The translations under genes and the position numbers were made by a program. This document shows, one piece after another, positions 1,853 through 30,408 of a DNA stretch of 36,218 nucleotides (position 1 is its first letter; each line of letters begins with the position of its first letter). The notes below the pieces were generated by a model. That model saw only the letters and a program-made list of their open reading frames with translations, was not told where the DNA came from and ran no database searches. The stretch spans positions 321-36,538 of the forward strand of contig DCGD01000067.1 of assembly GCA_002315195.1 (NCBI GenBank), in the 5' to 3' direction. This DNA is from Prevotellaceae bacterium UBA1787 (GTDB lineage Bacteria; Bacteroidota; Bacteroidia; Bacteroidales; Bacteroidaceae).

Positions 1853-1869
1853 GGAAATACATAACATAT

Positions 1870-2862
1870 ATGGCTAAGAATAAATCAGAACTCAGTGTAG
1901 TTTTACGTCCAATCATTGTTATCACTGTTGTTGTCCTCATTGTGGGCCTGATTGGTAGCCTGACATTGGGAAAAGATGAAGAGGTTATTCAAGGACAAGT
2001 CGAAGTGAGTCAATATCGCGTTTCTGGAAAAGTTCCGGGTCGTATTGCGAAATTCTATGTGAAGGAAGGCGATATGACCAAGGCGGGTGATACATTGGTA
2101 AAACTGGACGTACCGGACATTGAGGCAAAATTGGCTCAAGCCAATGCCGCCCAGCAAGCCGCCCAGGCGGTGAGCGACAAGGCAAATCGCGGCACGCGCC
2201 GGGAGCAGATTCAAGGCGCCTTGGAAATGTGGAAAAAAGCGCAGGCAGGACGTGAAATCATGGAGAAAACCTACACCCGTATCAAAAATTTATATGACGA
2301 GGGCGTTGTCGCCGCGCAAAAGCTTGATGAAATAACTGCTCAGCGCGATGCCGCCATTGCGACGGAAAAAGCGGCCGAATCACAATACCAAATGGCCTTG
2401 AACGGTGCGCAAAGGGAGGACAAGGCAGCGGCCGCGGCAACTGTCGAACGTGCGATAGGTGCAGTAAGTGAAGTCAACAGTTATTTGAAAGAGGCTGTTC
2501 TTTTGGCAAGTCATGACGGGGAAGTCAGCGAGATACTTCCTCGATTGGGCGAATTGGTCGGTACGGGTTCACCTATCATGAACATTTCGATGTTGGATGA
2601 TATGTGGGTGACATTCAACGTACGTGAAGACTTGTTGAAAGACCTGCAGATGAATGCCACCGCAACTGCTTTCATACCGGCTTTGGGAAACAAGGAAATA
2701 ACGCTGAAAGTATATTATATCAAGGACCAAGGCAGTTATGCCGCATGGAAAGCCACCAAATCGACCGGACAATTTGATTTGAAAACATTTGAAGTAAAGG
2801 CGCGTCCCATCGAGTCGGTTGAAAACTTGCGTCCCGGCATGACGGTGGTCCTCAAGAGGTAA
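1870..2862 (+). CDS. HlyD/EmrA-family membrane fusion (periplasmic adaptor) protein
   Basis: The product is 330 residues with one N-terminal membrane anchor (about residues 13-34). The first biotinyl-lipoyl half follows (near residues 40-80, with RVSGKVPGRIAKFYVKEGD), then an alanine-rich coiled-coil hairpin (about 85-210), then the second lipoyl half and a beta-barrel domain ending with LRPGMTVVLKR. This is the standard architecture of adaptors that bridge an inner-membrane pump to a TolC-type duct. It starts 17 bp after the TolC-like gene and precedes two ABC-2 permeases, so it is very likely the adaptor of that exporter. Length and domain order are usual for YbhG/EmrA-like members. Confidence 0.9.
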   Translation: MAKNKSELSVVLRPIIVITVVVLIVGLIGSLTLGKDEEVIQGQVEVSQYRVSGKVPGRIAKFYVKEGDMTKAGDTLVKLDVPDIEAKLAQANAAQQAAQAVSDKANRGTRREQIQGALEMWKKAQAGREIMEKTYTRIKNLYDEGVVAAQKLDEITAQRDAAIATEKAAESQYQMALNGAQREDKAAAAATVERAIGAVSEVNSYLKEAVLLASHDGEVSEILPRLGELVGTGSPIMNISMLDDMWVTFNVREDLLKDLQMNATATAFIPALGNKEITLKVYYIKDQGSYAAWKATKSTGQFDLKTFEVKARPIESVENLRPGMTVVLKR

Positions 2863-2892
2863 TCGCGTTGTCACAAGTAGAGTAGATTTTTT

Positions 2893-4074
2893 ATGCGAAA
2901 AGAGTACAACTCAAATAGTTGCTTCCGCGACATATTCATCCGGGAATTACGTCGTATGGCATCGCGACCTATTTGCCTATACTGTATTGTAATAGCGCCC
3001 TTATTTTGTCTCTTTTTCTTCACATCGCTGATGGACGATGGCATACCGCATGATTTGCCCGTCGGCGTTGTGGATTTAGATAATTCTTCTACTTCCAGGA
3101 AAATCATCCGAACCTTGGATGCTATGGATCAATGCAAGGTGGTTCAAGTATATCACAACTACTCCGATGCAAGAATAGCCATGCAAGAAGGAAAAATCTA
3201 TGCTTTTCTGTATATTCCAAGTCGTTTCTCAGAAGACTTGCAGTCCATGAGACGACCTGAATTGACATATTATATCAATTATTCCATAATGGTTTCCGGC
3301 GCCTTGATATATAAAGACATGCGTCGGTTGGTAGAGTTGGCGTCCGCATCAGCCATGCAGAAAAAGTTGTTTGCACGTGGCGCGACTGAAAAGCAGACAC
3401 TGAGTTTCCTACAGCCCATTGTCATTGAATCTCATGCCACTTACAATCCTACGCTCAATTATGCCATTTATTTGAACAATACCATTCTTCCCGGAATATT
3501 AATGTTGCTTATTTCCCTGTTGACGGTTTATTCAATAGGGAGCGAGGTTAAGGAAAAAACCGCACTCTTTTGGTTGCGTAGAAGCAATCATTCAATACTG
3601 CTTGGCGTTGCCGCGAAATTATTACCTTATACCATTGCGTTCTTAGGGATTAAATTATGTTGCGATGCATATATGTATGGTGTGTTGGAATATCCATGTA
3701 ACACCGATTTAGCTTCGTTGATGCTACTTGATTTTGTCATGATCGTGTCAGCGCAGGCTTTGGGTGTCATATTCTATTCACTCATACCCGTAATGCGACT
3801 GTCGTTGAGCGTTTGCAGCCTTTGGGGGGTTGTTGGTTTCTCCATCAGTGGTTTTTCTTTTCCAACGCTCGCGATGACTTCTCCAATACAGGCGTTGAGC
3901 AATTTGTTCCCGCTTCGTCATTACTATCTCATCTATGTAAGTCAGATATTGGATGGAAACGGCTTGGCGTATTCTTGGATAAGTTATGCGTCTTTGTTGG
4001 TTTTTGTATTGTTGGCGCTTGCACTTCTCATGCGTCTCAAAAGTGAAATTATTCATTTACTCTACATTCCTTGA
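2893..4074 (+). CDS. ABC-2 type transporter permease (first of pair)
   Basis: The 393-residue membrane protein has one transmembrane segment near residues 29-46, a long extracytoplasmic region (about 47-190, with GVVDLDNSSTSRKI typical of the ABC2_membrane_3 group) and five or six further membrane segments to the C terminus. This resembles the YbhR/YbhS/YhhJ half-permeases. It overlaps the next permease region by its stop codon, and the two probably form a heterodimer. No nucleotide-binding protein is encoded beside it, which is unusual if this is a classical ABC exporter. Confidence 0.85.
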   Translation: MRKEYNSNSCFRDIFIRELRRMASRPICLYCIVIAPLFCLFFFTSLMDDGIPHDLPVGVVDLDNSSTSRKIIRTLDAMDQCKVVQVYHNYSDARIAMQEGKIYAFLYIPSRFSEDLQSMRRPELTYYINYSIMVSGALIYKDMRRLVELASASAMQKKLFARGATEKQTLSFLQPIVIESHATYNPTLNYAIYLNNTILPGILMLLISLLTVYSIGSEVKEKTALFWLRRSNHSILLGVAAKLLPYTIAFLGIKLCCDAYMYGVLEYPCNTDLASLMLLDFVMIVSAQALGVIFYSLIPVMRLSLSVCSLWGVVGFSISGFSFPTLAMTSPIQALSNLFPLRHYYLIYVSQILDGNGLAYSWISYASLLVFVLLALALLMRLKSEIIHLLYIP

Positions 4075-4082
4075 TACTTATT

Positions 4083-5279
4083 ATGAAAGCTGCAAACAGT
4101 AAATTAATACAAGGGATAAAGAACATTGTTCGCATCTGCCAAAAGGAAATAGACATAATTTTGCACGATGAGGGTGTCTTGATATTTTGTGTCCTGGTGC
4201 CCTTGTTTTATCCGTTGTTGTATTCCATGATTTATCAAACGGAAACCATTCATGAGGTTCCCGTAACCGTGATAGATGATTCAAAAACGGCCTTGAGCAG
4301 AACATTCGTCCGTAAGTTTGACGCATCATCGTGGGTGAAGGTAATCGGATATTCTGACAATGTCGAAGATGCTAAGGAGCAAATCAAAAGACAGAATACA
4401 TACGGCTTTATCAAAATACCTGAAGATTTTTCAGACAGGATAGTCAGGGGAGAACAGGCATTTGTGGGAATGTACGGAGACATGAGTGGGATGTTGTATT
4501 ACAAAGGCATACTTATAGCCGCCACAGACGTATCGTTGGACATGAACGAGAAAATCAAGATAGAGCGGATACCCGGCATGACAAAGAGCGATGATGAAAT
4601 TATTACATATCCAGTCACCAACAAAGATGTCGCATTGTTTAATACCCAGCAGGGGTTTGCCGTTTTCTTAATACCCGCGGTGTTGATGCTCATAATTCAA
4701 CAGACATTGCTCCTCGGCATAGGTATGGCGGATGGCACAGCGGCAGAAAGAGGAGAATACACGCGCATCTTGACATACGGACGTCGTTTTCGCGGCTTGC
4801 TGGATGTTATCTTGGGTCGGACGCTTGCTTACTGTTTGCTTTATGCCATAACAACTGCATACATGTTGTGCATAGTTCCCCGATTTTTTGGCATAACTCA
4901 AATTGGACAAGGAACAACGATTTTGGCATTTGTCATTCCCTACATACTTGATTGCATATTTTTTGCTCAGACAATGGCCGTCTTGATACGCAACAGAGAG
5001 ATAAGCATCTTGGTCTTTGTGGTCACATCCCTGCCCATTTTGTTCATTTCCGGAATATCATGGCCGGGCGTGTCCGTACCTGCATTTTGGAAAGGCATTT
5101 CATGTCTCTTGCCTACTACTTTCGGAATCAATGGTTTTGTTCGCATCAACACCATGGGAGCCACACTTCAACAGGTGTTGTATGAATGGGGTATGTTGTG
5201 GGTTCAGGCCATTGCTTATTTCCTCATTCTGTATTTCAGGTTGCACAGAGATGTCAAACGCCTGATTTCAGAAGAATAG
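4083..5279 (+). CDS. ABC-2 type transporter permease (second of pair)
   Basis: The frame is open from a TTG at 4071, but the ATG at 4083 gives a more usual start (MKAANSK) 8 bp after the preceding stop, so I use it (398 residues). The topology matches its neighbour: one N-terminal membrane segment (about 30-50 of the mature frame), a large periplasmic region containing VPVTVIDDSKTALSRTF, and five or six C-terminal segments with the FISGISWPG motif seen in this permease group. It is the last gene of the TolC-HlyD-permease-permease operon. The stop codon lies inside a convergent terminator stem. Confidence 0.85.
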   Translation: MKAANSKLIQGIKNIVRICQKEIDIILHDEGVLIFCVLVPLFYPLLYSMIYQTETIHEVPVTVIDDSKTALSRTFVRKFDASSWVKVIGYSDNVEDAKEQIKRQNTYGFIKIPEDFSDRIVRGEQAFVGMYGDMSGMLYYKGILIAATDVSLDMNEKIKIERIPGMTKSDDEIITYPVTNKDVALFNTQQGFAVFLIPAVLMLIIQQTLLLGIGMADGTAAERGEYTRILTYGRRFRGLLDVILGRTLAYCLLYAITTAYMLCIVPRFFGITQIGQGTTILAFVIPYILDCIFFAQTMAVLIRNREISILVFVVTSLPILFISGISWPGVSVPAFWKGISCLLPTTFGINGFVRINTMGATLQQVLYEWGMLWVQAIAYFLILYFRLHRDVKRLISEE

Positions 5280-5311
5280 AATCCAATCCATGGCGCGTGA
5301 AAATTCTATTC
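5274..5311. terminator. Bidirectional terminator between convergent genes
   Basis: GAATAGAAT (5274-5282) and ATTCTATTC (5303-5311) form a perfect 9-bp stem with a 20-nt loop. T-rich sequence follows on the plus strand. The stem carries the stop codon of the plus-strand permease (5277-5279) and the end of the minus-strand CBS-domain gene (5306), so one short hairpin could serve both operons. Confidence 0.6.
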
Positions 5312-6595
5312 GTCCTTGTTTTCATTTTTGTTCTTGAATGTCACAAGAACTTTGTCAATGCGGTTCCCGTCCATTTGTGCTATGTGAAGATGGAAACCAT
5401 TCCAATCACAGTTTTCCCCCACTATGGGTATATGGTCCAAAAGTACCAATATCAAACCCGCCAAGGTGTTGTAGTTGCCTTGATATAGACTTTCCTTGTC
5501 GAAATATTCGAGAAAATCATAAAATGGACATTGACCATACACTTCCCAACTGATGCCCTGTTGGCGTTCCACAATGTCCGGACTTTCAGAATCCACTTCA
5601 ATGGTCCCAACCAGTCCCTCAAAAATGTTGCGCAGGGTGATGATGCCTTGCAATGCGCCGAACTCATCGCACACAAAGGCGAAACTGAAACGATATTTCT
5701 TCAAATATTCGAGTGCCTTGTAAACCGTGATGTTTTCGGGGAAGTATAGCGGTTTCTGCAAGTTTGTGTGAAGGTTGAAATCAGGTTTTCCTAACTGCAT
5801 GACAAGATCTTTTAGTTTGATATAGCCGCGGATGTTTTCAATGTCGCCATCGATTACGGGATAATTGCCAAATGGTGTTTCTTGAATGATGGCTTTCACC
5901 TGCTCGCTTGTCATGTTTATGTCAAGTGCGACGATTTCGGTCCGGTACGTCATGATTTGGTCCACTTTTTGGTCACCCATAATCAAGGCACGTTCCATAA
6001 TGTCCTGCTCTACTTCTTCGACTTCTCCGTTTTCCGTACCCTCTCGGATGACGGACTTTATTTCTTCTTCTGTTATGCGCGTGTCTTCTTTGTGAAGATG
6101 GAAAAGTCGCACAAGTGCGTTCGTATTGATGGTCATCAGCCACACAAAAGGTTTTGAGACGGCGGCAAAGAACAACATCGGCGGAGCGCAGAGTTTTGCC
6201 ATAAAGTCGGCCATGTCAATGCCAATGCGTTTAGGAAACAGTTCTCCCAATTCACACTGCAGATAGGTGGCGACAATAAGAATGACGGTTTTTGAAACAA
6301 TGGGTGCCAGGTCTTCTGAAAGGCCAATCTGTTGCAACCAAATCGTGAAATTATCCGAAAGGGCTGCCCCGGAGTAGATACCGGTCAATATGGATACGAT
6401 GGTAATTCCTATCTGACAAGTAGAAAGAAATTTATTGGTGTCATCAATCAAGCCGACCGCCATTCTCGCACTGCGACTGCCTTTGTCGGCTTGGGAGACC
6501 AAGCGCCCCCGACGGGCGGAGATGTAAGCCACTTCTGCCATTGAGAAAAAGGCGTTAAAGGCTATAAGGGTTATTATGATAATTATATTTGCCAT
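5306..6595 (-). CDS. CNNM/CorC-type (DUF21-CBS) membrane protein
   Basis: The product has 429 residues and three domains in the usual order. First is an N-terminal DUF21/CNNM transmembrane domain (about 1-175, starting with a membrane segment and the conserved AFFSMAEVAYISARRGRL). Next is a tandem CBS pair (about 205-330). Last is a C-terminal CorC_HlyC/TerC-associated domain (about 345-425). Known members (CorC, MpfA, CNNM) act in magnesium or divalent-cation efflux; older annotations call them haemolysin TlyC. It stands alone on its strand, convergent with the efflux operon and divergent from the redox operon. The ion handled here is inferred from family only. Confidence 0.88.
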   Translation of the reverse strand: MANIIIIITLIAFNAFFSMAEVAYISARRGRLVSQADKGSRSARMAVGLIDDTNKFLSTCQIGITIVSILTGIYSGAALSDNFTIWLQQIGLSEDLAPIVSKTVILIVATYLQCELGELFPKRIGIDMADFMAKLCAPPMLFFAAVSKPFVWLMTINTNALVRLFHLHKEDTRITEEEIKSVIREGTENGEVEEVEQDIMERALIMGDQKVDQIMTYRTEIVALDINMTSEQVKAIIQETPFGNYPVIDGDIENIRGYIKLKDLVMQLGKPDFNLHTNLQKPLYFPENITVYKALEYLKKYRFSFAFVCDEFGALQGIITLRNIFEGLVGTIEVDSESPDIVERQQGISWEVYGQCPFYDFLEYFDKESLYQGNYNTLAGLILVLLDHIPIVGENCDWNGFHLHIAQMDGNRIDKVLVTFKNKNENKDE

Positions 6596-6860: not shown

Positions 6861-6892
6861 GTTGAATAAGATTTTTTTTTTGCGTATTTTTG
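6861..6892 (+). promoter_or_regulatory. Likely promoter of the redox operon
   Basis: GTTG (6861-6864), 20 bp, then TATTTTTG (6885-6892) fits the Bacteroidetes TTTG/TAnnTTTG pattern with one mismatch in the upstream element. It would start transcription near 6899, about 60 nt before the ATG at 6959. Confidence 0.5.
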
Positions 6893-6958: not shown

Positions 6959-8485
6959 ATGCAAACAAAGAAAAAAGGCTGGTTTTGGGCAGGCGTGGTA
7001 GGTTTGCTTGTGGGTAGCAGCGTGATGATAGTTTTGGATTATTATTACAATAAATCATCAGAAAATGAATCGTGTATGGTATGCCATGTGCATCCGCAGG
7101 CGGAAGACTCTTGGAAGAAATCTTCTCATTACAATAATGAAAGTGGTGTGATGACCAATTGCGTAGCTTGTCATTTGCCTCCTGAAGGCACGTTTGAACA
7201 TTTCACAGCCAAAGCGAAAACCGGCATGAAGGATGTGTGGAGTTACATGACCAAGAAAAAAGAAGACTTGGATTTTGAAAGCAAGAAAGAGTTGGAATAT
7301 GCCGTCAAGATTGTGTACAACGAATCTTGCAAGAAATGTCATGTCAACCTTTTCCCAAAGAATTTATCCGATGATGGCATAGCCGCGCATTTGTATTACG
7401 AGGAGAATGAAAAGGCTTTGGATCTTCAATGCATCAGTTGCCATTTGGACGTGGGACACTATAATCCGAATTACAAGCATGCAGCCATGACGTCAGCGCC
7501 CATTGATACTACAGGCGTGGGGTTTGACAGTGCGACGATAGTCAAGGAATTCAAGAACTTTACCGAAAAGATACCGGGGACGCAGGTGACCATTAACATG
7601 GTGGCAGTCCCGGGTGGAGAATTCATGATGGGAAGCGAGAATGGCGATGCATACAGCAAGGAAGACGAGTATCCACGTCATAAAGTGAGTGTTGATCCGA
7701 TTTTCATGGGAGAAACTGAGATAACATGGAATCAGTATTGGGCGTTCTATGTGGAATGTATGTCTGAAGGACGTACTCCGCCCGAGGCGGTATATGCCAA
7801 CAATACTCGTCCTGATGTGGATGCGGTTTCGGGACCGACCCCTCCATTCGGCGCACCCGACCAAGGTTGGGGAATGGGTGAACGGCCGGCCATTACCATG
7901 ACACATTATGGCGCGGAGACGTTCTGTCAGTGGCTGTCCTTGAAAACGGGCAAGAAATATCGTCTGCCGACTGAAGCCGAATGGGAACATGCCGCCCGCG
8001 GTGGAAAGGAAACGCCTTATTTCTTTGAAGGCAAACCTTCTTCTTTCAGCAATGAAAGTTTCTGGTCCTCACTTTTCGGAGCGGATACGACAGTGATCAA
8101 TCGCTATATCGTTTATGTCAACAACAGCAAGAACCGCAGCCAGGAACCGTCAAAGGTAAGCCCTAATCCTTACGGATTGAAGAACATGTTGGGAAATGTC
8201 ATGGAGTATTGCTCCGACTGGTATAGCGACAAGGCATATTCCGAAATTTCGGACGGGACAGCCAATCCAAAAGGTCCGTCATCAGGTACTGAGCATGTTG
8301 TACGCGGTGGGTGCTACTCGGATGACGCATCCAATTTGCGTTGTGCTTCCCGAGGACATACAAATCATGACGCATGGCTTAAAACCGACCCTCAGAATCC
8401 AAAGAGCATTTGGTGGTATTCAGACATTAAGGGCGTAGGTTTCCGCATTGTGTGCGAAGTGCCGGAAGGTGTCAATACAAAATAA
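6959..8485 (+). CDS. Tetrahaem NapC/NrfH-like cytochrome fused to an FGE-like domain
   Basis: The product is 508 residues. Residues 8-27 form a single N-terminal membrane anchor. Four c-type haem motifs follow: CMVCH (39-43), CVACH (68-72), CKKCH (124-128) and CISCH (158-162), in the size range and arrangement of NapC/NrfH menaquinol dehydrogenases. Residues about 210-500 form a formylglycine-generating-enzyme-like (FGE-sulfatase) fold, with VPGGEFMMGS (217-226), YRLPTEAEWEHAARGG (334-349), YGLKNMLGNVMEYCSDWY (405-422) and VVRGGCYSDD (447-456). The Cys pair that binds copper in true FGEs is not recognisable in the last region, so this half is probably not a classical FGE. Both domains would face the periplasm. 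It heads an operon with two Tat lipoproteins and cytochrome c maturation genes. The role is inferred: electron transfer between the quinone pool and a periplasmic partner. Confidence 0.85.
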   Translation: MQTKKKGWFWAGVVGLLVGSSVMIVLDYYYNKSSENESCMVCHVHPQAEDSWKKSSHYNNESGVMTNCVACHLPPEGTFEHFTAKAKTGMKDVWSYMTKKKEDLDFESKKELEYAVKIVYNESCKKCHVNLFPKNLSDDGIAAHLYYEENEKALDLQCISCHLDVGHYNPNYKHAAMTSAPIDTTGVGFDSATIVKEFKNFTEKIPGTQVTINMVAVPGGEFMMGSENGDAYSKEDEYPRHKVSVDPIFMGETEITWNQYWAFYVECMSEGRTPPEAVYANNTRPDVDAVSGPTPPFGAPDQGWGMGERPAITMTHYGAETFCQWLSLKTGKKYRLPTEAEWEHAARGGKETPYFFEGKPSSFSNESFWSSLFGADTTVINRYIVYVNNSKNRSQEPSKVSPNPYGLKNMLGNVMEYCSDWYSDKAYSEISDGTANPKGPSSGTEHVVRGGCYSDDASNLRCASRGHTNHDAWLKTDPQNPKSIWWYSDIKGVGFRIVCEVPEGVNTK

Positions 8486-8514
8486 ATAGATTCATACATC
8501 ATAGTATTAACAAT

Positions 8515-9870
8515 ATGGAAAACAAAGAGATTAACAGAAGACAGTTCCTTTCATATACAGCGTTGGCAGGAGCTGCAGTTGCAGTACCGGCATTGTTGTC
8601 TGGTTGCAAAAAAGGGAATGAGATGACCCCGTTGCGTGCGGAGGGCGAGTACTATGTACCTGAATTGCCTGACAAGGCTGACGAAGGCAAGGAATTGAAA
8701 GTTGGTGTTATCGGTTGTGGTGGTCGTGGTTCCGGCGCAGTCATCAACCTTCTTGATGCTGCTGATGGCATTACCGTCACTGCATTGGGTGATGTTTTTG
8801 AAGACAGATTGAATAATTTGCGTGATCGTTTGAAGAATGACCGTCAGCAGGAAGTCGCTGCTGAAAATTGTTTCATCGGTTTCGACGCTTATCAAAAAGT
8901 CATCGATTCAGGTGTGGATATGGTAATCATCGCCACGCCTCCTTTCTTCCGCCCCGAGCATTTCAAATATGCAACCGAGAAGGGTGTACACTCATTCTTG
9001 GAGAAACCAATTGCCGTAGATCCAAAGGGCTATCGTACCATTATGGCGGCGGCAAAGCAGGCAGAGGCCAAGGGTCTGAGCGTTGTTACCGGTACGCAGC
9101 GTCATCATCAGCGTCCATACGTTGAGGCATTCCAGAAAATACAGCAGGGTATGATTGGTGAAATCACCGGTGGAAACGTATATTGGAATCAAAACATGTT
9201 GTGGTACAGAACCCGCGAGGCTGGTTGGAGCGACATGGAATGGATGATTCGCGATTGGGTAAACTGGAAATGGCTTTCCGGTGACCATATCGTAGAGCAG
9301 CATGTTCATAACCTTGATGTATTCTTGTGGATGGCAGGTTATCCAAAGTTGTCAACCGCCACTGCTTTCGGTGCGCGTCACCGCCGTATCACGGGCGACC
9401 AGTTTGATATGTTCAGCGTGGACTTTACATTTGAAAATGGCATTCACTTGCACAGCATGTGCCGTCAGATAGAAGGTTGCGCCAACCGCGTAAGCGAATT
9501 TATCCAAGGTTCAAAGGGTTCATGGAACAGCGAGACACATGAAATCAAGGATTTGCAAGGCAACGTGATTTGGAAATTCGACGATGCAGCGGCACAGCAG
9601 CAGTTCAAGCAGCACGATCCATACGTACTTGAGCATGTAGATTGGGTTAACCATATCCGTAGGGGAACTGCTCATGTTGAAGCAGGCGATACCGCAATCT
9701 CTTGTATGGCAGCCGTCATGGGACGCGAATCCGCATATACAGGCGCAATGACAAATTGGGACGAGATGACACAGTCTCCGTTGGATTACACTCCGGCTAA
9801 GTTGGAGATCGGTCCTATGGATATGTCCGCTTATACAGTTGCAGTTCCAGGTACCGGCGAAAATAAATAA
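8515..9870 (+). CDS. Tat-exported lipoprotein oxidoreductase, Gfo/Idh/MocA family
   Basis: The frame is open from 8452, but the ATG at 8515 gives a proper export signal, so 451 residues is preferred. The N terminus carries NRRQFLS (residues 7-13), a twin-arginine motif, then a hydrophobic stretch and lipobox LLSGC with Cys31. This predicts export through Tat and lipid anchoring. A Rossmann nucleotide-binding motif GCGGRG (67-72), an EKP motif (163-165) and conserved EQHVHNLD (261-268) place it in the Gfo/Idh/MocA family of NAD(P)-dependent sugar and polyol oxidoreductases. Folded export with bound cofactor is established for the family member glucose-fructose oxidoreductase. It lies 29 bp after the cytochrome gene and 2 bp before the isomerase-like gene. 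The substrate is unknown. Confidence 0.88.
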   Translation: MENKEINRRQFLSYTALAGAAVAVPALLSGCKKGNEMTPLRAEGEYYVPELPDKADEGKELKVGVIGCGGRGSGAVINLLDAADGITVTALGDVFEDRLNNLRDRLKNDRQQEVAAENCFIGFDAYQKVIDSGVDMVIIATPPFFRPEHFKYATEKGVHSFLEKPIAVDPKGYRTIMAAAKQAEAKGLSVVTGTQRHHQRPYVEAFQKIQQGMIGEITGGNVYWNQNMLWYRTREAGWSDMEWMIRDWVNWKWLSGDHIVEQHVHNLDVFLWMAGYPKLSTATAFGARHRRITGDQFDMFSVDFTFENGIHLHSMCRQIEGCANRVSEFIQGSKGSWNSETHEIKDLQGNVIWKFDDAAAQQQFKQHDPYVLEHVDWVNHIRRGTAHVEAGDTAISCMAAVMGRESAYTGAMTNWDEMTQSPLDYTPAKLEIGPMDMSAYTVAVPGTGENK

Positions 9871-9872
9871 TT

Positions 9873-10781
9873 ATGAAAAGACGTCAATTCTTACAGGTGG
9901 CTGCTGCCAGTGCGGCTGCCTTGACGCTTTCTTCTTGCGGTGCTAAGGAAGGCGCATGTGGCAAAAAGTGCAATAAGAGTAATGCGGATACCAAGTTGAA
10001 CATTTCTTTTCAGGAAGGAACCGCTCCCGGTGAAAATTTGAAGGAAAAGTTTGACTATATGGAAAAACTCGGCATTGTTGGTTTTGAACCGCACGGACGC
10101 GGATTGAAAGATCGTGTTGCCGAAATCAAGGAAGCACTGAACGGACGCAACATCAAGGTTTCTGCCATTTGCGCAGGATTTGATGGTTTCATACTCGCCG
10201 AAAATGAAGAAGAAAAGGCGAAGTTCGATACAACCATGCGTGAAATCATCACCGCGGCAGGTGAATTGGGTTCAGTAGGCGTTATCATGGTCCCCGCGTT
10301 CAACGGACAGCAGCCTTGCAAGCCTCATACAACGGAAACCCGCCAATTCCTTTGCGAACAGTTGCATGAACTTGGAGAATTTGCGCTCCAGAACAACACT
10401 ACCGTTATTCTTGAACCTCTGAATCGTGCCGAAGCGCATTATCTCCGCCTCGTGGAAGATGCAGCTGCCATTTGCCGTGACGCCAACAGCGAAGGTGTGA
10501 AGTGCATGGGTGATTTCTGGCACATGAAAGAAGAAACTTCCGATTACGCGGCGTTCATCTCAGCAGGAAAATATCTTCAGCATGTTCACATAGCAAGTCG
10601 CGGAAACCGCATCATGCCGGGCGAAGATGGAGAACTTGACAATTACATCGATGGTATGCGTGCGCTCAAGGAAATGAACTATCAAGGCTATGTCAGCTTT
10701 GAGTGTGGAACCAATGGTGACCGTGCCGTAACTGTTCCAGCCGCTGTTGAACTCTTGCGCAAACAGTGGGAGGAGGCATAA
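9873..10781 (+). CDS. Tat-exported lipoprotein, AP2Ec TIM-barrel (sugar isomerase/epimerase-like)
   Basis: The product is 302 residues. KRRQFLQ at residues 2-8 is a twin-arginine motif, followed by an Ala-rich hydrophobic stretch and a lipobox ending at Cys22 (LSSC). The rest is a xylose-isomerase-like TIM barrel of the hydroxypyruvate isomerase, IolE and epimerase group. Metal-ligand candidates stand at the expected strand ends: Glu181 (ILEPLN), Asp214 and His217 (GDFWHM), His237/239 (HVHIA) and Glu277 (SFECG), so it is probably active. The gene is separated by 2 bp from the Gfo/Idh/MocA gene, suggesting linked steps. Such pairs are known in inositol catabolism (IolG/IolE) and in C-glycoside cleavage (DgpA/DgpB), where a 3-keto sugar is made and then rearranged or eliminated. 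The substrate here is not known. Confidence 0.85.
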   Translation: MKRRQFLQVAAASAAALTLSSCGAKEGACGKKCNKSNADTKLNISFQEGTAPGENLKEKFDYMEKLGIVGFEPHGRGLKDRVAEIKEALNGRNIKVSAICAGFDGFILAENEEEKAKFDTTMREIITAAGELGSVGVIMVPAFNGQQPCKPHTTETRQFLCEQLHELGEFALQNNTTVILEPLNRAEAHYLRLVEDAAAICRDANSEGVKCMGDFWHMKEETSDYAAFISAGKYLQHVHIASRGNRIMPGEDGELDNYIDGMRALKEMNYQGYVSFECGTNGDRAVTVPAAVELLRKQWEEA

Positions 10782-10802
10782 GGATGGCATAATAACATCC
10801 TG

Positions 10803-11951
10803 ATGAACATGTTCAAACTTTTACAATACTGCATTTGTCTTTTGTTGACAGGTGCAGTATTGCAGTTTTTTTGCGGTGAGGTGGACAATTCTTGTTTGGC
10901 CTATCCCTGGAGTGCAGTCATTTTCCTCAATTTTTCGGGAATACTTGTTTTTTTGTTTTTTAGATGCGAAAATCACAAGTTTTTTCGTTCGCTGTTCAGT
11001 GAAAATGCCGGCATTGCTGTTTTGGTGACATTGCTTATACTTGTTTTGGCAATGGGGGTGACGGGTAAAAACATCAGCCATTCTTGGCCGTTTGTCTTGT
11101 TGATGCTTTGGCTGGTGGCAATGACAGGTGTTGTTGCCATTCGTGACTGGCATAATTTCCGTCAAGTGTCAAAATCCGCACTGCTTTTTCATGTCTCGTT
11201 GTTCCTGGTTTTGTCTGCAGCCATTTTTGGCAATGCTGACAAGCAACAAATTACCGTCAGGGCAAGTTTGGGTAATGAGATTGCCGAAGGTTTTGACAAG
11301 AAAGAGAACATTGTTCATTTGCCTTTTTCCATACAGTTGGAAGCCTTTCATTTTGAAGAGTACGCCCCGAAACTCTGTTTCTTGACCGATAGTGACGGAG
11401 TGAATGAAGAACTTGCCTTTGTAGCAGACAATAAGGGCAAGGTATTTGACTGTTCAGGATGGACATTCAGCGTAAGTCGGTATTATGATGAAGCCATTCC
11501 TTTAGACAATTTGCAAAACTTTCAAGAGATGCATCATGTGGGTGCGGCCCACGTCGCCTTTGTAGAGGCTTCAAAGGGAGACGTCCATGTGGATGGTTGG
11601 GTTTGTGCGGAAAGTTTTTTGCTCAAACCGATTAATTTACAATTGGATGAAAAACATTTTATAGCTTTCAAACCAGCGTCACCCAAAGGATATGAATCTG
11701 AATTGCTTTTGAGAGATATGAAAGGCGACAAGGAATCATGTAGCACAAGTGTCAACCATCCGGCAGTTTTTGGAAATTGGCTCATCTACCAAAAAGGATA
11801 TGATGTTCAAAAGGGAAAATGGAGCGATTACAGCATACTTGAATGTGTTCATGACGGTTGGTCGTGGATGACGCGTGTAGCGTTATGGCTGATGGTGTTG
11901 GCTACCGCTGTGGCTATTGTTGAGGCACGGAAGAAATCAAGAAAGAAATGA
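10803..11951 (+). CDS. ResB-like cytochrome c biogenesis membrane protein
   Basis: The 382-residue product has about five N-terminal membrane segments (roughly 8-25, 36-53, 70-88, 97-113, 128-145), a large periplasmic domain (about 146-355) and a final membrane segment (359-377). This is the layout of short ResB/Ccs1-like proteins found with CcsA in Bacteroidetes. A His in membrane segment five (SALLFHVSLF) is a possible haem contact. It overlaps the ccsA start by 4 bp (ATGA), indicating translational coupling. ResB and CcsA together form the system II synthase that attaches haem to CxxCH motifs in the periplasm, matching the tetrahaem protein that starts this operon. Sequence divergence of ResB proteins keeps confidence moderate. 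Confidence 0.78.
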   Translation: MNMFKLLQYCICLLLTGAVLQFFCGEVDNSCLAYPWSAVIFLNFSGILVFLFFRCENHKFFRSLFSENAGIAVLVTLLILVLAMGVTGKNISHSWPFVLLMLWLVAMTGVVAIRDWHNFRQVSKSALLFHVSLFLVLSAAIFGNADKQQITVRASLGNEIAEGFDKKENIVHLPFSIQLEAFHFEEYAPKLCFLTDSDGVNEELAFVADNKGKVFDCSGWTFSVSRYYDEAIPLDNLQNFQEMHHVGAAHVAFVEASKGDVHVDGWVCAESFLLKPINLQLDEKHFIAFKPASPKGYESELLLRDMKGDKESCSTSVNHPAVFGNWLIYQKGYDVQKGKWSDYSILECVHDGWSWMTRVALWLMVLATAVAIVEARKKSRKK

Positions 11952-12730
11952 TGTTGACAGAACTATTTCCATTTGTGGCTTTGACGGCCGTTGCTTTTTG
12001 GTTGGCGGCTTCCGTTGTTGCCTTGAAAAACAAAGGTGTTGCCGCGACAATTGTTTGTTCGACAGTGGGTACACTCGTTTTTTCAGGACTGATTGCCTGG
12101 ACTTGGGTGGAAACTGAGCGGCCGCCCCTGAGAACGATGGGCGAGGTGCGTTTGTGGTATTCCTTGTTTCTCGCAGTAATCGGGCTGTTGGTTTTTTTGA
12201 GGACGAAATGGCGTTGGTTGCCCATAGTAAGTTCCTTGCTCGCCACTGTTTTTGTGACGATTTCCTTGTGCCGCCCGGAATTGTTTGAAACGGATTTGAT
12301 GCCGGCGTTGCAAAGTCCTTGGTTTGTTCCCCACGTCGCCGTGTATATCTTCTCATACTCCTTGTTGAGCATAGCGACAATCTATGCCTTGTGGTTGCGG
12401 GTTAGAAAGCCTGTTCGGGTACCTTCTGCTTCAGAACTTTCGGATGAGCGGGCCATGGTAATGATGGGATGGGCGTTGCTTACCTTTGGAATGGTGACCG
12501 GAGCGTTTTGGGCCAAGCAGGCATGGGGGGATTGGTGGTCGTGGGATCCGAAGGAAACATGGGCGGCGGCAACTTGGATGGGGTATTTACTTTACATACA
12601 TCGCAGTCTCCGATGTCGCTACGGTGCCGTGCAACTGACGTTACTTATCGTTTCCTTTCTAATGTTGCAGATGTGTTGGTATGGCCTCAAGTTTCTTTCT
12701 TCTTCATCCACGAGCATTCATGTATATTGA
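11948..12730 (+). CDS. ccsA: CcsA, cytochrome c system II haem-attachment protein
   Basis: The product has 260 residues and about eight membrane segments. The hallmark tryptophan-rich WWD loop is present as WWSWDPKETWA (196-206), which presents haem on the periplasmic side. Conserved flanking histidines are candidates at His129 (WFVPHVA) and His218 (YLLYIHRS), with His258 near the C terminus. It begins with two successive ATG codons inside the end of the ResB-like gene. It is the last gene of the redox operon. Co-transcription with a tetrahaem cytochrome suggests dedicated maturation, although it may serve all c-type cytochromes of the cell. Confidence 0.9.
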   Translation: MMLTELFPFVALTAVAFWLAASVVALKNKGVAATIVCSTVGTLVFSGLIAWTWVETERPPLRTMGEVRLWYSLFLAVIGLLVFLRTKWRWLPIVSSLLATVFVTISLCRPELFETDLMPALQSPWFVPHVAVYIFSYSLLSIATIYALWLRVRKPVRVPSASELSDERAMVMMGWALLTFGMVTGAFWAKQAWGDWWSWDPKETWAAATWMGYLLYIHRSLRCRYGAVQLTLLIVSFLMLQMCWYGLKFLSSSSTSIHVY

Positions 12731-13005: not shown

Positions 13006-13761
13006 CTAAATTAGGTATTTCCTCAATCCGCAGAAAAGATATATCGCCATGCAGTATATGGATTTCAATAATCCTACGGATTCGTATTTTCTAATTATAT
13101 TCCACTGGCTTCTTACCATTTTTAGTTTGTTGCCAGATCTGGAATTGGGTGTGATGCGATATAAGGCGTGCATCTTTCCTGTATTGTATGCAATAAACCC
13201 TTTTCGTAACAGTGCCAACAGAAAGATATAGTCTTCTTTTTTTTCCTTTATGAATGATAGACTACCTATGGCATCCTTCCTTATCATCAGCGTCAGCCAA
13301 GGTATTCCGTCTGTCTTGAGAAGATCACGATAATCGTATTGGTTTGCCGTCATTACAAGCCTGCCATTTCTTTGTCCATCGTACATGATTTTCTCATAAT
13401 GGGAGAACACCACGGCGTATTGGTTTGTTTCAGCAAATTCCACCTGCTCTGACAATTTGAATGGTTCCCAAAGATCATCACTGTCCAAGAATGCGATATA
13501 CTTTCCTTTGGCCTCTTTGATACTCCTGTTTCTTGGTGCCGCCGGTGAACCAGAACGAAGGTTTGACCTATATAGTTTGATACGCGGGTCATGTTTAGTG
13601 TATGTCTCTATGATGGCAATCGTATTGTCTGTAGAACCATCATCGGTAATAAGCATTTCCCAGTTTTGGTAAGTCTGTGCTTTGACAGACTGAATGGTCT
13701 CAGCAATAAAATCGGCAGAGTTATAACTGGGCGTTATTATTGAAACTAATGGTGTATTCAT
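13006..13761 (-). CDS. Family 2 glycosyltransferase
   Basis: The product is 251 residues with a GT-A fold. The N terminus VSIITPSYNS and the DDGSTD motif (40-45) bind the nucleotide, and DSD at 93-95 is the metal-binding DXD equivalent. No membrane segment is evident apart from a hydrophobic C-terminal stretch. It is the last gene of the polysaccharide operon, sharing one base with the stop of the preceding acyltransferase gene. It should add one sugar to the lipid-linked repeat unit on the cytoplasmic side. Donor and linkage cannot be told. Confidence 0.9.
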   Translation of the reverse strand: MNTPLVSIITPSYNSADFIAETIQSVKAQTYQNWEMLITDDGSTDNTIAIIETYTKHDPRIKLYRSNLRSGSPAAPRNRSIKEAKGKYIAFLDSDDLWEPFKLSEQVEFAETNQYAVVFSHYEKIMYDGQRNGRLVMTANQYDYRDLLKTDGIPWLTLMIRKDAIGSLSFIKEKKEDYIFLLALLRKGFIAYNTGKMHALYRITPNSRSGNKLKMVRSQWNIIRKYESVGLLKSIYCMAIYLFCGLRKYLI

Positions 13762-14768
13762 TATAATACTTTTTTATTCAGGAATGGAATGAGATGAAGA
13801 ATGTATGATGCGAGTAGAGAGAGTAAGAATGATGTTGTCACAATGACCGCCATGTTGGCAGGAGGATTGAGTGTTAACATATTTTCTACATGTAATCCCT
13901 TGAACATGACATTCAGAAATACTGGGTGTATGATGTAAATACAGAAGCAGTGTCTTGACAATTTATGTATCGACCTGCTTTCTATGGATTTGAATCTCAT
14001 GATGCAGAACAATGCTGCCGATGCAGCGATAGAGAGCATAAACTCCGGTCCCACGATAGGGTTGCAGACTCTTGCTGCCAAGAAGCAATATACTATGTAA
14101 ACAATGAGGCAGGCAAAGGAAAGCATTGATGTCTTTGCATCGTTGGGTATATACCTGTTGATATAGAAACCGAGATAGTATGTAGCAATGAAACTTGGCA
14201 GCATCATGTAACTGTTCATGTTCATACCAGTTATCATGCAGATGTTAGGAATCAGTATTCCCATGATGGCAAGAACCCAGGCAAATTGTGTGTGTTCCTT
14301 TTTTGTTGTATGAAGAATGTAGGTGTGGAGGGGTGGAGTAACGAGATATAGTCCAAGTAGCATATACAGATACCACATGTGTGTCCAGCAGTTGCCTGTA
14401 AGGAAGTTTATGAGGCTTTGGGAGAGTATCGATGTAGTGGAGGTGCAGCGATTGGTCATGACCTGCTCGATGATGCACATGGGAAGACCGAAGACGATTA
14501 GTGCCAACAGTATGCGTGGCATGTATTTCCTGACAACCTGAGTGTAGGTGATGGCCTGTGGTTTGTCAAGAAGCAGGGCTCCGCTGATGATGACGAATAA
14601 GGCTACGGCACAGGAAGAGAGGTTGTATGCTACCTTATATGCGAACAAGATGGTATCTCCGTCATCCGGATCATGCGATGATATAAACAGTGATGACACG
14701 TGTATGAAGATAACCATTATGGTGGCTATCCCACGAAGGGTGTCGATGAATGGGATATGTTGCTTCAT
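13761..14768 (-). CDS. Acyltransferase family 3 membrane protein (O-acetyltransferase-like)
   Basis: The 335-residue protein has about ten membrane segments. The N-terminal IDTLRGIATIMVIFIHVSS (8-26) has the conserved Arg12 and catalytic-type His23 of the OafA/NodX acyltransferase-3 family. These proteins move acyl groups, usually acetyl, onto surface polysaccharides. The start overlaps the end of the SGNH-like gene by 4 bp. It is one of three such proteins in this operon. No fused SGNH domain is present. Confidence 0.88.
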   Translation of the reverse strand: MKQHIPFIDTLRGIATIMVIFIHVSSLFISSHDPDDGDTILFAYKVAYNLSSCAVALFVIISGALLLDKPQAITYTQVVRKYMPRILLALIVFGLPMCIIEQVMTNRCTSTTSILSQSLINFLTGNCWTHMWYLYMLLGLYLVTPPLHTYILHTTKKEHTQFAWVLAIMGILIPNICMITGMNMNSYMMLPSFIATYYLGFYINRYIPNDAKTSMLSFACLIVYIVYCFLAARVCNPIVGPEFMLSIAASAALFCIMRFKSIESRSIHKLSRHCFCIYIIHPVFLNVMFKGLHVENMLTLNPPANMAVIVTTSFLLSLLASYILHLIPFLNKKVL

Positions 14769-15667
14769 TTGATATACTTCTTTATGCTGTCGGCCAGCTG
14801 TGCGGTATAGATGAGTGCACCTTGGTGGTTGAGGTGGTCTTTATCTCCAAACAAGCTTGGCTTTTTCTTGTAAAAGGAGGCATTGTAGTTGTCAATGACC
14901 GGGATGTTCAATTCCCGGCAAAGCGCAAGGGCACGCTCGTGGGACTGTGCATGGTAGGTGTTGTAGTAGTGTGGTGGAAGGAAGCATACAATCCGTATGT
15001 GGCGCGATGTGGCATCGCGCATCAGCCGATTCAGATATTTGAACTTTCGCTCGTCAACTTTTACGTTCTCTGTTCCGGCACTGTCTGGTATCTCGTATGG
15101 CGTGAATACATTATAGAATGGATCATAACCTTGCGTACCTTTGTTCTTTTGAGTCATTGCATAGAAAGCTGTGGTTATCCACTCAGAATTGAACTTCACA
15201 AAGTTGCATTTCAGTTTTATGGCGTCATTCGCATGTCCCAAATCGTCGTACACCTCATTTATGGTGTGTTCCATACCATAGTAACCTTTGAAAGATTTGA
15301 GGTACTCTGTATAGTCGTTGCCGATGTCGATGTAGTCATATCCCGGGGTCAGGGCATAGGCAATCACCTTTGGAGTGTGGTTGCGTAGGAACATGTTGTA
15401 GCGGACCCATGCGCATAGGGCACCGTTTCCAGCTTCCCCTGCGTTGTAGCAGGTCATCCCAAGGTGTTCGGTCAAGACTTGTGGCACTATTTCCCTTACG
15501 GCGTATGAGGAACCGAGTATCAGTATATCTTCCCTTGCCTCATACATGCAGTGGTAGTTTTGTGTATGGGCATATTGCTCTAACATCCTGTTTGTCCATC
15601 CGAAGACAGTGTCGAGGACAGTTACGACAACCAAAAACGATAACATGTATATCAGGAATTTCTTCAT
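14765..15667 (-). CDS. SGNH-hydrolase-like membrane-anchored protein, likely MBOAT partner
   Basis: The product is 300 residues with an N-terminal hydrophobic anchor (about 4-22). SGNH-type blocks are visible: ILGSSYAVRE with the nucleophile-type Ser at 53-54, a glycine block around 76-81 (AGEAGNG), and the C-terminal catalytic Asp275-x-x-His278 in GDKDHLNHQGA. The layout recalls AlgJ, AlgX and DltD-like proteins that act with a membrane-bound O-acyltransferase to acylate polymers outside the cytoplasm. The MBOAT gene lies immediately upstream (15-bp gap), supporting that pairing. It could instead remove acyl groups as an esterase; the sequence does not decide. Confidence 0.7.
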   Translation of the reverse strand: MKKFLIYMLSFLVVVTVLDTVFGWTNRMLEQYAHTQNYHCMYEAREDILILGSSYAVREIVPQVLTEHLGMTCYNAGEAGNGALCAWVRYNMFLRNHTPKVIAYALTPGYDYIDIGNDYTEYLKSFKGYYGMEHTINEVYDDLGHANDAIKLKCNFVKFNSEWITTAFYAMTQKNKGTQGYDPFYNVFTPYEIPDSAGTENVKVDERKFKYLNRLMRDATSRHIRIVCFLPPHYYNTYHAQSHERALALCRELNIPVIDNYNASFYKKKPSLFGDKDHLNHQGALIYTAQLADSIKKYIK

Positions 15668-15682
15668 TGGTGTTTGCCATTG

Positions 15683-17116
15683 TTAGAACGTGACGTAGAT
15701 GAACTGACTGGAATCGAGTACTCCGATGGAGAGGATCAGGCAGGAAATGACGATGTAGAACACGAACTGCATAGGGGTGTTGCGCATGATGCGGTTCTCA
15801 GAGAAATATTCGTGCATGATGTCGTATGCAAAGAGTATTGGTAAACCGATGGAAAGGCATGTCAGAGTGAGGGTGTCCATAGGTGCAATCGTGAAGGGTT
15901 TGAAATCGGTAACGAAGAGTCCAACCATGGCTGTTGCATCCGAAAGCGTTGGCATGCGGAAGAATATCCATGCCAGACTGACAAGATTGAAGGTAATCAT
16001 CATGCGTAACAATCTCTTTGCCGTAATTTTCGCACTGGTCTGCTTGATCTCATGCTTGAGACGTTGTCCCATTATTGCCTTCTCTATTATCTGAAGCAGC
16101 CCATGCATGGTTCCCCAAACAATGAAAGTCCAATACGCTCCATGCCATAGTCCGCTGACAAGAAATGTAGCCAAGATGTTCCAGTATTGACGCCATTTGG
16201 AACACCTGTTGCCTCCAAGGTTGATATATACATGTGTGGTCAGCCAATTCGTTAGCGAAATGTGCCAACGCTTCCAGAATTCGGTAACAGAGGCAGCAAG
16301 GTACGGCCGTTCAAAGTTATTGATAAGGTCGAATCCCATGGTCTTGGCTATGCCTATTGCCATCAGTGAGTAGCCGGCAAAGTCACAGTAAATTTGCAGT
16401 GTGTACATAATGCTGGCAAGAAAACATACCGAACCAGAGCAATGGGTGTAGTTGGCATAGACGGTATCTACGTAGATGCCGATGCGGTCGGCCAGTACCA
16501 TCTTGAGAAACATGCCCCAGAGGAGCATCTTCATGCCTGTGATGCCCTGATTGAAACGGAAGACATGAGGTGTCTTAATCTGCGGCATAAGGTTCTTTGT
16601 GGTGCTGATGGGGCCCGAAATTACTTGTGGGAAAAAACTGACAAATAGCAGATAGTCGAGAAGATTATTTTCGGCTTCTATACGCTTGTGGTAAGCGTCC
16701 AGTAGGTAGCCGACGGCTTGGAAGGTAAAGAATGATATACCTACGGGTATTGCCCAGTTAAGTCCCGGGAGGGCAAAATGCAAACCTGCCATTTCAAGGA
16801 CGGTTGTAAGGATTTGGTTCAGGAAGTTATAGTACTTGAATACCAATAATGGAAGGATTCCGAGAATGGCAAATACCCATGTAATGGTTGTATTGCGTTT
16901 CTTTTTCCCTTCCTTTAACATATTTGCACCAAAGTAGGTTACAAGGCTTACTCCTATCAGGACAATGGCAAAAGCCGGTTTCCAGTTCATATACAGCAAG
17001 TGACTGACAATAAGCAGGAATATGTTTCTAATTCTATTGTATTTTGCCGGTATCAGCCAGTATATGGTAAATACCAGGGGAAATATAAACCAGAAGTTCA
17101 GACTGTTGAATAGCAT
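15683..17116 (-). CDS. MBOAT family O-acyltransferase (AlgI-like)
   Basis: The 477-residue protein has about eleven membrane segments. AlgI/DltB signatures are present: DFAGYS (245-250), EFWKRWHISLTNWL (279-292) with His285, and SGLWHGAYWTF (321-331) with the catalytic-type His325. Members transfer acetyl or other acyl groups across the membrane to polysaccharide or teichoic acid. The next gene encodes an SGNH-like anchored protein, as in alginate and other polymer acetylation systems. It starts 4 bp after the preceding acyltransferase-3 gene stops. Confidence 0.92.
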   Translation of the reverse strand: MLFNSLNFWFIFPLVFTIYWLIPAKYNRIRNIFLLIVSHLLYMNWKPAFAIVLIGVSLVTYFGANMLKEGKKKRNTTITWVFAILGILPLLVFKYYNFLNQILTTVLEMAGLHFALPGLNWAIPVGISFFTFQAVGYLLDAYHKRIEAENNLLDYLLFVSFFPQVISGPISTTKNLMPQIKTPHVFRFNQGITGMKMLLWGMFLKMVLADRIGIYVDTVYANYTHCSGSVCFLASIMYTLQIYCDFAGYSLMAIGIAKTMGFDLINNFERPYLAASVTEFWKRWHISLTNWLTTHVYINLGGNRCSKWRQYWNILATFLVSGLWHGAYWTFIVWGTMHGLLQIIEKAIMGQRLKHEIKQTSAKITAKRLLRMMITFNLVSLAWIFFRMPTLSDATAMVGLFVTDFKPFTIAPMDTLTLTCLSIGLPILFAYDIMHEYFSENRIMRNTPMQFVFYIVISCLILSIGVLDSSQFIYVTF

Positions 17117-17120
17117 TATG

Positions 17121-20256: not shown

Positions 20257-20265
20257 TTATGTACG

Positions 20266-21414: not shown

Positions 21415-21449
21415 ATTTGCTTATTCTTGGCTTTCGTTTTCGACATCAT

Positions 21450-24158: not shown

Positions 24159-24162
24159 TGCG

Positions 24163-25461: not shown

Positions 25462-25470
25462 CAGTGTGTT

Positions 25471-26694: not shown

Positions 26695-26736
26695 GTATGT
26701 CGAAAAACCGTCAGGTCATGAAACCGTACAACCATC

Positions 26737-27798: not shown

Positions 27799-27806
27799 AA
27801 ATGGCT

Positions 27807-30137: not shown

Positions 30138-30408
30138 TTCTCTATAAAAAAATGTTAAGTAAGTAATCAAATTTACCTTTATATTATAAAATTATTCTTG
30201 TATCAATTTTCTTAATGCCTACTTCTCTATTATTGGCAGTGCGGCAATAAGTGTTGCTTATGGTTGGCAATAATATGAAAATTTCATGTAAACAATTTAA
30301 TATTAGCATAATAAGATGTCATTATGGTTGAGCGCGTCCTCTTTTCATTGTACTTTGCTAAGAAGTACAGATATAATGATAAAGAGACAACTTTAAGATT
30401 AGACGGCT
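30138..30408 (-). other. Spacer between antiterminator and export genes
   Basis: This 271-bp gap is the longest inside the polysaccharide operon. It is AT-rich and has only short inverted repeats (for example CATAAT/ATTATG near 30308-30327). A lone -7-like TAAATTTG (30175-30168, minus) lies just ahead of the exporter gene without a matching upstream element. An internal promoter or processing site is possible but not supported. Confidence 0.3.

What the first reader, a model, noticed from the sequence alone, without database searches (positions are those of the whole stretch)
6959..12730. Self-contained periplasmic redox operon built around a cytochrome, two Tat lipoprotein sugar-type enzymes and its own haem-attachment machinery
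Seen: five tightly spaced plus-strand genes (gaps 29, 2, 21 bp and a 4-bp overlap) encode a tetrahaem NapC-like/FGE-like fusion, an RR-signal Gfo/Idh/MocA lipoprotein, an RR-signal AP2Ec TIM-barrel lipoprotein, a ResB-like protein and CcsA. Known: NapC/NrfH proteins exchange electrons with menaquinol; Gfo/Idh/MocA plus TIM-barrel pairs occur in inositol catabolism and in 3-keto-sugar based glycoside cleavage; Tat can export folded Gfo/Idh/MocA proteins with bound cofactor. Inference: an anaerobic respiratory or oxidative route in which a sugar-like or polyol substrate is oxidised or reduced in the periplasm and coupled to the quinone pool, replacing the usual NrfA-type partner. I do not know of a described system with this gene set.
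Basis: partly seen in the sequence, partly recalled or inferred. Interest (0 to 1): 0.8.

Follow-up and report, generated by a model that had tools for sequence, protein, structure and literature searches.

The report
Periplasmic cytochrome–sugar dehydrogenase operon of Bacteroidales
Gut-type bacteria carry an operon that ties an exported sugar-oxidising enzyme to a membrane cytochrome, which suggests a so far undescribed way to move electrons out of sugars between the two cell membranes.

Summary
The five genes are there as described, but the conserved unit is smaller. Its core is a pair: a tetrahaem NapC-type cytochrome fused to a formylglycine-enzyme-like (FGE) domain, then a Tat lipoprotein Gfo/Idh/MocA (GFO) dehydrogenase. 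The GFO gene lies directly downstream in 10 of 10 named and 34 of 38 sampled Bacteroidales loci, in 30 of 44 loci that match through the FGE domain alone (several phyla), and in 0 of 26 loci of more distant FGE proteins. Some Verrucomicrobia join a different cytochrome domain (PSCyt1) to this FGE lineage. Cytochrome-assembly genes sit in the operon only here and in one relative, L002. Among 247 genomes of the order, the cytochrome occurs in 0 of 170 without a 3-keto-disaccharide hydrolase match and in 23 of 24 with nine or more. Most likely it is the electron outlet of a periplasmic 3-keto-glycoside route, not a replacement for NrfA (19 of 33 carriers also have NrfA). The FGE catalytic cysteine pair is missing. 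How electrons pass from NADH to haem is not shown; no flavin protein is present. Ten paper searches listed no description.

The parts
6861..6892 (+). Bacteroides-type promoter-like sequence (GTTG, 20 bases, TATTTTTG), 66 bases before the first ATG
   Evidence: TAnnTTTG found at 6885; the consensus is recalled, not from a call; low confidence
6959..8485 (+). cytFGE: tetrahaem NapC/NrfH-like cytochrome fused to an FGE-like domain, 508 aa, N-terminal helix (membrane anchor inferred)
   Evidence: Pfam PF03264 and PF03781; AF2 helix 3-32, mean pLDDT 76; Foldseek hits FGE and PvdO
6965..7471 (+). NapC-type domain, residues 3-171, CxxCH at residues 39, 68, 124, 158
   Evidence: invariant in 58 aligned sequences
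7595..8368 (+). FGE-like domain, residues 213-470; the C....C.R cysteine-pair pattern is absent here and in the 57 relatives aligned
8515..9870 (+). Tat lipoprotein Gfo/Idh/MocA oxidoreductase, 451 aa; RR 8-9, lipobox Cys31, GCGGRG 67, EKP 163-165
   Evidence: AF2 mean pLDDT 87; Foldseek inositol dehydrogenases, RgNanOx, DgpA, GH109, GFOR
9873..10781 (+). Tat lipoprotein xylose-isomerase-like TIM barrel, 302 aa, four metal-ligand motifs shared with 6WN6
10803..11951 (+). ResB-like protein (CcsB of cytochrome c system II), 382 aa
   Evidence: Pfam PF05140, 32.0 bits against 24.6
11948..12730 (+). CcsA (haem-attachment protein of system II), 260 aa, tryptophan-rich WGDWWSWDPKETW stretch
   Evidence: Pfam PF01578 1.5e-26; TIGR03144 111.4 bits, below its 187.6 cut-off; stretch read

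Best explanation
The operon makes a membrane-anchored electron relay for a periplasmic sugar dehydrogenase. Shown: a tetrahaem NapC-type domain is fused to an FGE-like domain without the FGE cysteine pair; this FGE-like lineage stands next to a Tat-exported GFO dehydrogenase in several phyla; in the sampled order, carriers are the genomes rich in 3-keto-disaccharide hydrolases. Inferred: the FGE-like domain is the docking partner of the GFO enzyme. The GFO enzyme, exported folded with its NAD, oxidises a sugar or glycoside (most likely at C3). Electrons leave through the four haems to menaquinone and on to fumarate reductase. The TIM-barrel enzyme epimerises or eliminates the keto-sugar. ResB/CcsA attach the haems and sit in the operon only in this sub-branch. 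The step from NADH to haem is unexplained.
For: GFO gene directly downstream in 10/10 and 34/38 Bacteroidales loci, in 30/44 near FGE-only loci and 0/26 distant FGE loci. A different cytochrome domain (PSCyt1) on the same FGE lineage in Verrucomicrobia; L022 has a Tat GFO next door. NapC-FGE is one clade, 100/99. Genome link: PF06439 matches in 33/33 carriers against 44/214 others (p 6e-20), with a gradient from 0/170 (none) to 23/24 (nine or more matches); BT_2158_fam over cut-off in 32/33 against 32/214. ThuA-like gene in 7 of 48 loci (one checked by Pfam). TIM protein: 3KWS 1e-119, 6WN6 4.8e-29 with metal motifs shared. CcsA family somewhere in 33/33 carriers against 174/214 others, and in 14/14 carriers without NrfA against 87/125 others without NrfA.
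Against: No flavoprotein in the operon to pass electrons from NADH to one-electron haems. The FGE+GFO pair also exists without haem, so electron export is not its only job. 3-keto hydrolase genes lie near it in only 4 of 48 loci, one of them an end fragment. Four of the five Verrucomicrobial CxxCH-FGE proteins have no GFO gene next to them. Co-occurrence is not corrected for shared ancestry; genome G003 was chosen because it is a carrier. The check in Flavobacteriales was mixed: of 4 genomes with the haem-free FGE protein among 158, two have 15 hydrolase matches but no GFO within 1.5 kb, one has the GFO but no hydrolase match, and the seed has both. The TIM gene is on the same strand within 6 kb in only 14 of 48 loci.
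Confidence: 0.5

Rival explanations
1. The GFO enzyme works in a redox-neutral cycle, like GH109 or glucose-fructose oxidoreductase, on its bound NAD; the FGE-like domain only holds or shapes the enzyme, and the cytochrome is a safety outlet or serves a different partner.
For: Haem-free FGE+GFO pairs in Bacteroidota, Planctomycetota, Verrucomicrobiota and Acidobacteriota; structural likeness to GH109 6T2B and GFOR 1H6D; no flavin protein in the operon.
Against: Two different cytochrome types (NapC and PSCyt1) were joined to this FGE lineage; the four haem motifs are kept in the 58 aligned full-length sequences (rows were chosen among full-length hits, so this is weak).
Confidence: 0.22
2. The FGE-like domain is itself a redox enzyme (PvdO-like) acting on a sugar-derived substrate, with the cytochrome as its electron acceptor; the GFO and TIM enzymes prepare that substrate.
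For: PvdO, named dihydropyoverdine dehydrogenase by NCBIfam, is a sequence match (74.7 bits, cut-off 500) and a top structural match (5HHA, TM 0.73 by target length); the FGE domain keeps many invariant residues.
Against: No cofactor site could be named; PvdO cut-off not met; FGE cysteine pair absent; parts of the FGE-domain model have pLDDT under 50.
Confidence: 0.13
3. Anaerobic reductive route: menaquinol electrons go through the cytochrome to reduce a keto-sugar or another acceptor (respiratory reductase, replacing NrfA).
For: NapC/NrfH proteins usually oxidise menaquinol (recalled); Cytochrom_NNT domain.
Against: NrfA coexists in 19 of 33 carriers; no further redox-cofactor domain among the five genes; the NrfH cut-off is not met (69.5 against 134.2 bits); the genome link is to glycoside breakdown genes.
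Confidence: 0.1

Closest known systems
BT2156-BT2160 3-keto-glycoside system of Bacteroides thetaiotaomicron (BT2158 glycoside 3-dehydrogenase, BT2157 3-ketotrehalose hydrolase)
   Same: Periplasmic glycoside oxidation in Bacteroidales; 32 of 33 carriers hold BT_2158_fam over cut-off and 33 of 33 hold PF06439. Enzyme names from PMC11300592 and PMC9007349, passages seen
   Different: The GFO protein here scores 20.2 bits against a cut-off of 750 for BT_2158_fam; a cytochrome and an FGE-like domain are added; no hydrolase in the operon
LacABC lactose/glucoside 3-dehydrogenase (Caulobacter)
   Same: Multi-component glycoside 3-dehydrogenase encoded near DUF1080 (PMC9007349, passages seen); its cytochrome subunit is recalled
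   Different: LacABC uses a flavin GMC-type subunit (recalled); here a Gfo/Idh/MocA enzyme and no flavin protein
NrfH/NapC quinol dehydrogenases
   Same: Four haem motifs, N-terminal helix, Cytochrom_NNT
   Different: Fused to an FGE-like domain, no NrfA beside it; NrfH cut-off not met
Formylglycine-generating enzyme and PvdO/GldK-type FGE folds
   Same: Fold and sequence
   Different: Catalytic cysteine pair absent; fused to a haem domain; paired with a GFO enzyme
YcjS-YcjR of E. coli (glucoside 3-dehydrogenase plus 3-keto-glucoside 4-epimerase)
   Same: GFO enzyme plus TIM-barrel epimerase; TIM protein matches 6WN6 at 4.8e-29; that 6WN6 is YcjR, and its pathway, are recalled
   Different: The E. 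coli pair has no export signal or cytochrome (recalled)

Membership tests
NrfH (cytochrome c nitrite reductase small subunit) | NCBIfam TIGR03153 cut-off and an adjacent NrfA | tested here: not met
   69.5 against 134.2 bits; no NrfA domain among the operon genes
NapC/NirT cytochrome family (Pfam) | Cytochrom_NNT domain with four CxxCH | tested here: met
   7.5e-25; four motifs, invariant in 58 aligned sequences
Formylglycine-generating enzyme | Copper-binding catalytic cysteine pair | tested here: not met
   Alignment with 6S07: Cys452 falls opposite the first cysteine but is variable in relatives, Ala457 region opposite the second; C....C.R in 0 of 58 sequences
Gfo/Idh/MocA oxidoreductase | Rossmann NAD-binding fold with EKP motif | tested here: met
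   PF01408 3.2e-13; motifs; fold. NAD binding itself not testable here
BT_2158 glycoside 3-dehydrogenase | NCBIfam NF058561 cut-off of 750 bits | tested here: not met
   20.2 bits
3-keto-glycoside epimerase (6WN6 type) | TIM barrel with Glu-Asp-His-Glu metal site | tested here: met
   LEPLNR, GDFxHM, HVHIA and the last Glu align with 6WN6
3-keto-glycoside epimerase (6WN6 type) | Epimerase activity on a 3-keto-glycoside | not testable with these tools
   needs purified protein
Cytochrome c system II (CcsBA) | ResB and CcsA domains | tested here: met
   PF05140 and PF01578 over cut-off; the narrower equivalog TIGR03144 cut-off is not met
LacABC-type 3-dehydrogenase | GMC flavoprotein subunit | tested here: not met
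   No such domain among the five genes
Quinone-linked electron transfer | Quinol oxidation or quinone reduction by the cytochrome | not testable with these tools
   needs purified protein

The most novel reading that the evidence does not exclude
A new kind of respiratory sugar dehydrogenase: a Tat-exported, NAD-holding Gfo/Idh/MocA enzyme passes electrons through an FGE-fold adaptor to covalently fused haems and so to the quinone pool, with the FGE adaptor having been joined to two unrelated cytochrome types, NapC in Bacteroidales and PSCyt1 in Verrucomicrobia.
Probability: 0.4. Interest if true: 0.82.

Novelty: new variant of a known kind. Interest (0 to 1): 0.6.

Why it matters
The periplasm has no free NAD pool (recalled), so how exported NAD-type sugar dehydrogenases lose their electrons is an open question of the 3-keto-glycoside route. 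A cytochrome found in 23 of 24 sampled genomes with nine or more 3-keto-disaccharide hydrolase matches and in none of 170 without one makes that question testable. It would also give a role to a large family that sources name only 'SUMF1/EgtB/PvdO family nonheme iron enzyme' (names).

Tried and rejected
Rejected: NrfA replacement (no exclusion). Rejected: active formylglycine enzyme. Rejected: the five-gene operon as the conserved unit. Rejected: BT_2158 membership of the GFO protein. Inconclusive: the hydrolase link of the haem-free FGE protein in Flavobacteriales. Left open: how often PSCyt1 was gained within Verrucomicrobia; the tree needs 4 label changes (3 forced by strong branches), but gain and loss are not told apart, 50 of 500 shuffles were as low, and L052, labelled haem-free, is cut off at its start. 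Led nowhere: phage comparison of window 1-25000 (no match); paper searches without a relevant listing; Maribacter L017 and L048, where the FGE gene stands among other genes, not followed. Complex prediction of cytFGE with GFO was not possible with these tools.

The tree used 61 rows out of 90 domains kept from 119 sources. Hydrolase numbers are matched stretches at E<=1e-15 with about 12 candidates scored per genome, so high numbers are floors and two-domain genes count twice; genome completeness was not told. A minimum of 90% completeness was asked for but could not be seen in the answers.
Full report
Observation. The second gene starts best at ATG 8515, where the RR signal and lipobox lie. 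Four CxxCH motifs are invariant in 58 aligned sequences. Of 7998 scored candidates 6717 are homologues of the first protein; of the 120 listed, those with a name are Bacteroidales. No whole genome is held for the window. The named near relatives are labelled Bacteroidaceae bacterium and similar, so the source is probably an uncultured Bacteroidales.

What is conserved. In named genome contigs 10 loci hold the full cytochrome-FGE protein (L001-L010), all with the GFO gene directly downstream. In a draw of 247 genomes of the order of G003 (the Parabacteroides genome of L003), 33 carry it, in 38 places. Of these 38 loci, refetched with flanks, 34 have the GFO gene within 1.5 kb downstream; the exceptions are L111, L121, L127 and L146, the last at a contig end. 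L003 and L115 are the same locus, so there are 47 distinct loci. The TIM gene lies within 6 kb on the same strand in 4 of 10 and 10 of 38 loci at tblastn E<=1e-3; by looser clustering, anywhere in the stretch and on either strand, it appears in 25 of 49 loci, the window included. ResB and CcsA genes follow only in the window and, as one fused 730-aa protein, in L002. On the FGE tree the window and L002 are sisters (99/96), so in-operon haem attachment looks like a trait of that branch.

A wider pair. The next 44 relatives (L011-L054) match through the FGE domain; 30 have a GFO gene just downstream and L049 has it upstream. The 26 weaker FGE loci (L055-L080) have none. The near group includes Planctomycetota, Verrucomicrobiota, Acidobacteriota and other Bacteroidota. 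Most lack haem motifs. In Verrucomicrobia five carry N-terminal CxxCH motifs (L013, L022, L024, L030, L034). Two of these were scanned with Pfam and hold PSCyt1 domains (L013, L022); only L022 of the five has the GFO gene next to it. NapC-FGE is one clade on the tree (100/99). NapC and PSCyt1 are different families, so at least two fusions happened; how many within Verrucomicrobia is open (4 label changes, 3 forced, 50 of 500 shuffles as low).

The domains. The FGE-like domain aligns with true FGEs (6S07, 1.1e-21). Cys452 falls opposite the first catalytic cysteine but varies among relatives, and the cysteine-pair pattern C....C.R occurs in 0 of 58 sequences. The model (mean pLDDT 76; stretches of the haem domain, the linker and the FGE domain below 50) matches human FGE and PvdO. 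The GFO model (pLDDT 87) matches inositol dehydrogenases, RgNanOx, DgpA, GH109 and GFOR. By sequence its best solved relative is the P2B11 glucuronide-3-dehydrogenase (8TDI, 1.3e-10); a profile of the family finds only the inositol dehydrogenase 3CEA at E<=1e-15. It is not a BT_2158 family member (20.2 against 750 bits). The TIM protein matches 3KWS (1e-119) and the 3-keto-D-glucoside 4-epimerase 6WN6 (4.8e-29), with the metal motifs in place.

Link to the 3-keto-glycoside route. In the same 247 genomes PF06439, named 3keto-disac_hyd in Pfam, matches in 33 of 33 carriers and 44 of 214 others (p 6e-20). The share of genomes with the cytochrome rises with the number of matches: 0 of 170 (none), 2 of 23 (1-2), 4 of 22 (3-5), 4 of 8 (6-8), 23 of 24 (nine or more). 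BT_2158_fam is over cut-off in 32 of 33 carriers and 32 of 214 others. PMC9007349 (passages seen) calls BT2157 a 3-ketotrehalose hydrolase of this domain family, and PMC11300592 (passages seen) calls BT2158 a periplasmic glycoside 3-dehydrogenase whose mutant does not grow on trehalose, leucrose or palatinose; PMC11501099 (one passage seen) found neither gene needed for raffinose-family sugars. A ThuA-like gene lies in 7 of 48 cytFGE loci (one checked with Pfam). A 3-keto hydrolase gene lies in only 4 of 48, one of them an end fragment, by a profile made here from 25 proteins. These associations are not corrected for kinship, and G003 was the seed.

Haem supply and NrfA. PF01578 occurs in 33 of 33 carriers and 174 of 214 others (p 0.004). 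Among genomes without NrfA, 14 of 14 carriers keep it against 87 of 125 others (p 0.009, one-sided). This fits a need for haem attachment supplied elsewhere in the genome. NrfA is in 19 of 33 carriers and 89 of 214 others (p 0.09): no sign of replacement.

Results against, or mixed. A haem-free FGE protein was found in 4 of 158 Flavobacteriales genomes. Two (G366, G390) have 15 hydrolase matches each but no GFO gene within 1.5 kb; one (G291) has the GFO gene but no hydrolase match; the seed G008 has both, with 13 matches. The counts 13, 15 and 15 are the highest of the 20 genomes with any match, the next being 7. So the FGE protein again goes with many hydrolases, but the GFO pairing does not map simply onto the route there. 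No flavin protein is in the operon, so NADH-to-haem transfer lacks a known carrier.

Reading. The most likely function is an electron relay for an exported sugar dehydrogenase in 3-keto-sugar metabolism (0.5). Rivals are a redox-neutral GFO enzyme with the cytochrome as a side outlet (0.22), a PvdO-like active FGE domain (0.13) and a reductive route (0.1). None listed a paper that, by title, abstract start or the passages I read, describes this gene set. The library lacks most subscription journals; a paper on the broad-specificity 3-keto pathway whose title I recall did not come up under its title words (one search gave three other papers that contain them). The system is therefore rated a new variant of a known kind.

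Noticed in passing
window 13006-30915, minus strand: A surface-polysaccharide locus: among the genes scanned are glycosyltransferases, acyltransferases, an MBOAT protein, WbsX, a flippase-type protein, an SLBB export protein and, at its upstream end, a NusG-like gene.
   Followed up: partly
window 395-5279, plus strand: An efflux set: outer membrane efflux protein, HlyD-type protein and two ABC-2 permeases.
   Followed up: no
window 5306-6595, minus strand: A CNNM/CorC-type protein divergent from the operon; its 88% relative and the 88% relative of cytFGE both lie on a contig of 9237 bases, probably the same one.
   Followed up: partly
L017 2-7889 and L048 9875-12487: In Maribacter the haem-free FGE gene is followed by other genes (in L017 a CxxCH-bearing protein, an RR-signal protein and a further CxxCH-bearing protein) and not by a GFO gene, another setting for the same domain.
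   Followed up: no
cytFGE residue 45: An invariant His follows the first haem motif (CxxCHxH) where NrfH has a Met ligand (NrfH detail recalled), so haem 1 may be ligated differently.
   Followed up: no
L003 14564-17576 and L115 (same locus): In Parabacteroides the cytFGE-GFO-TIM genes are followed by LuxR-type regulators and a TonB-dependent receptor.
   Followed up: partly
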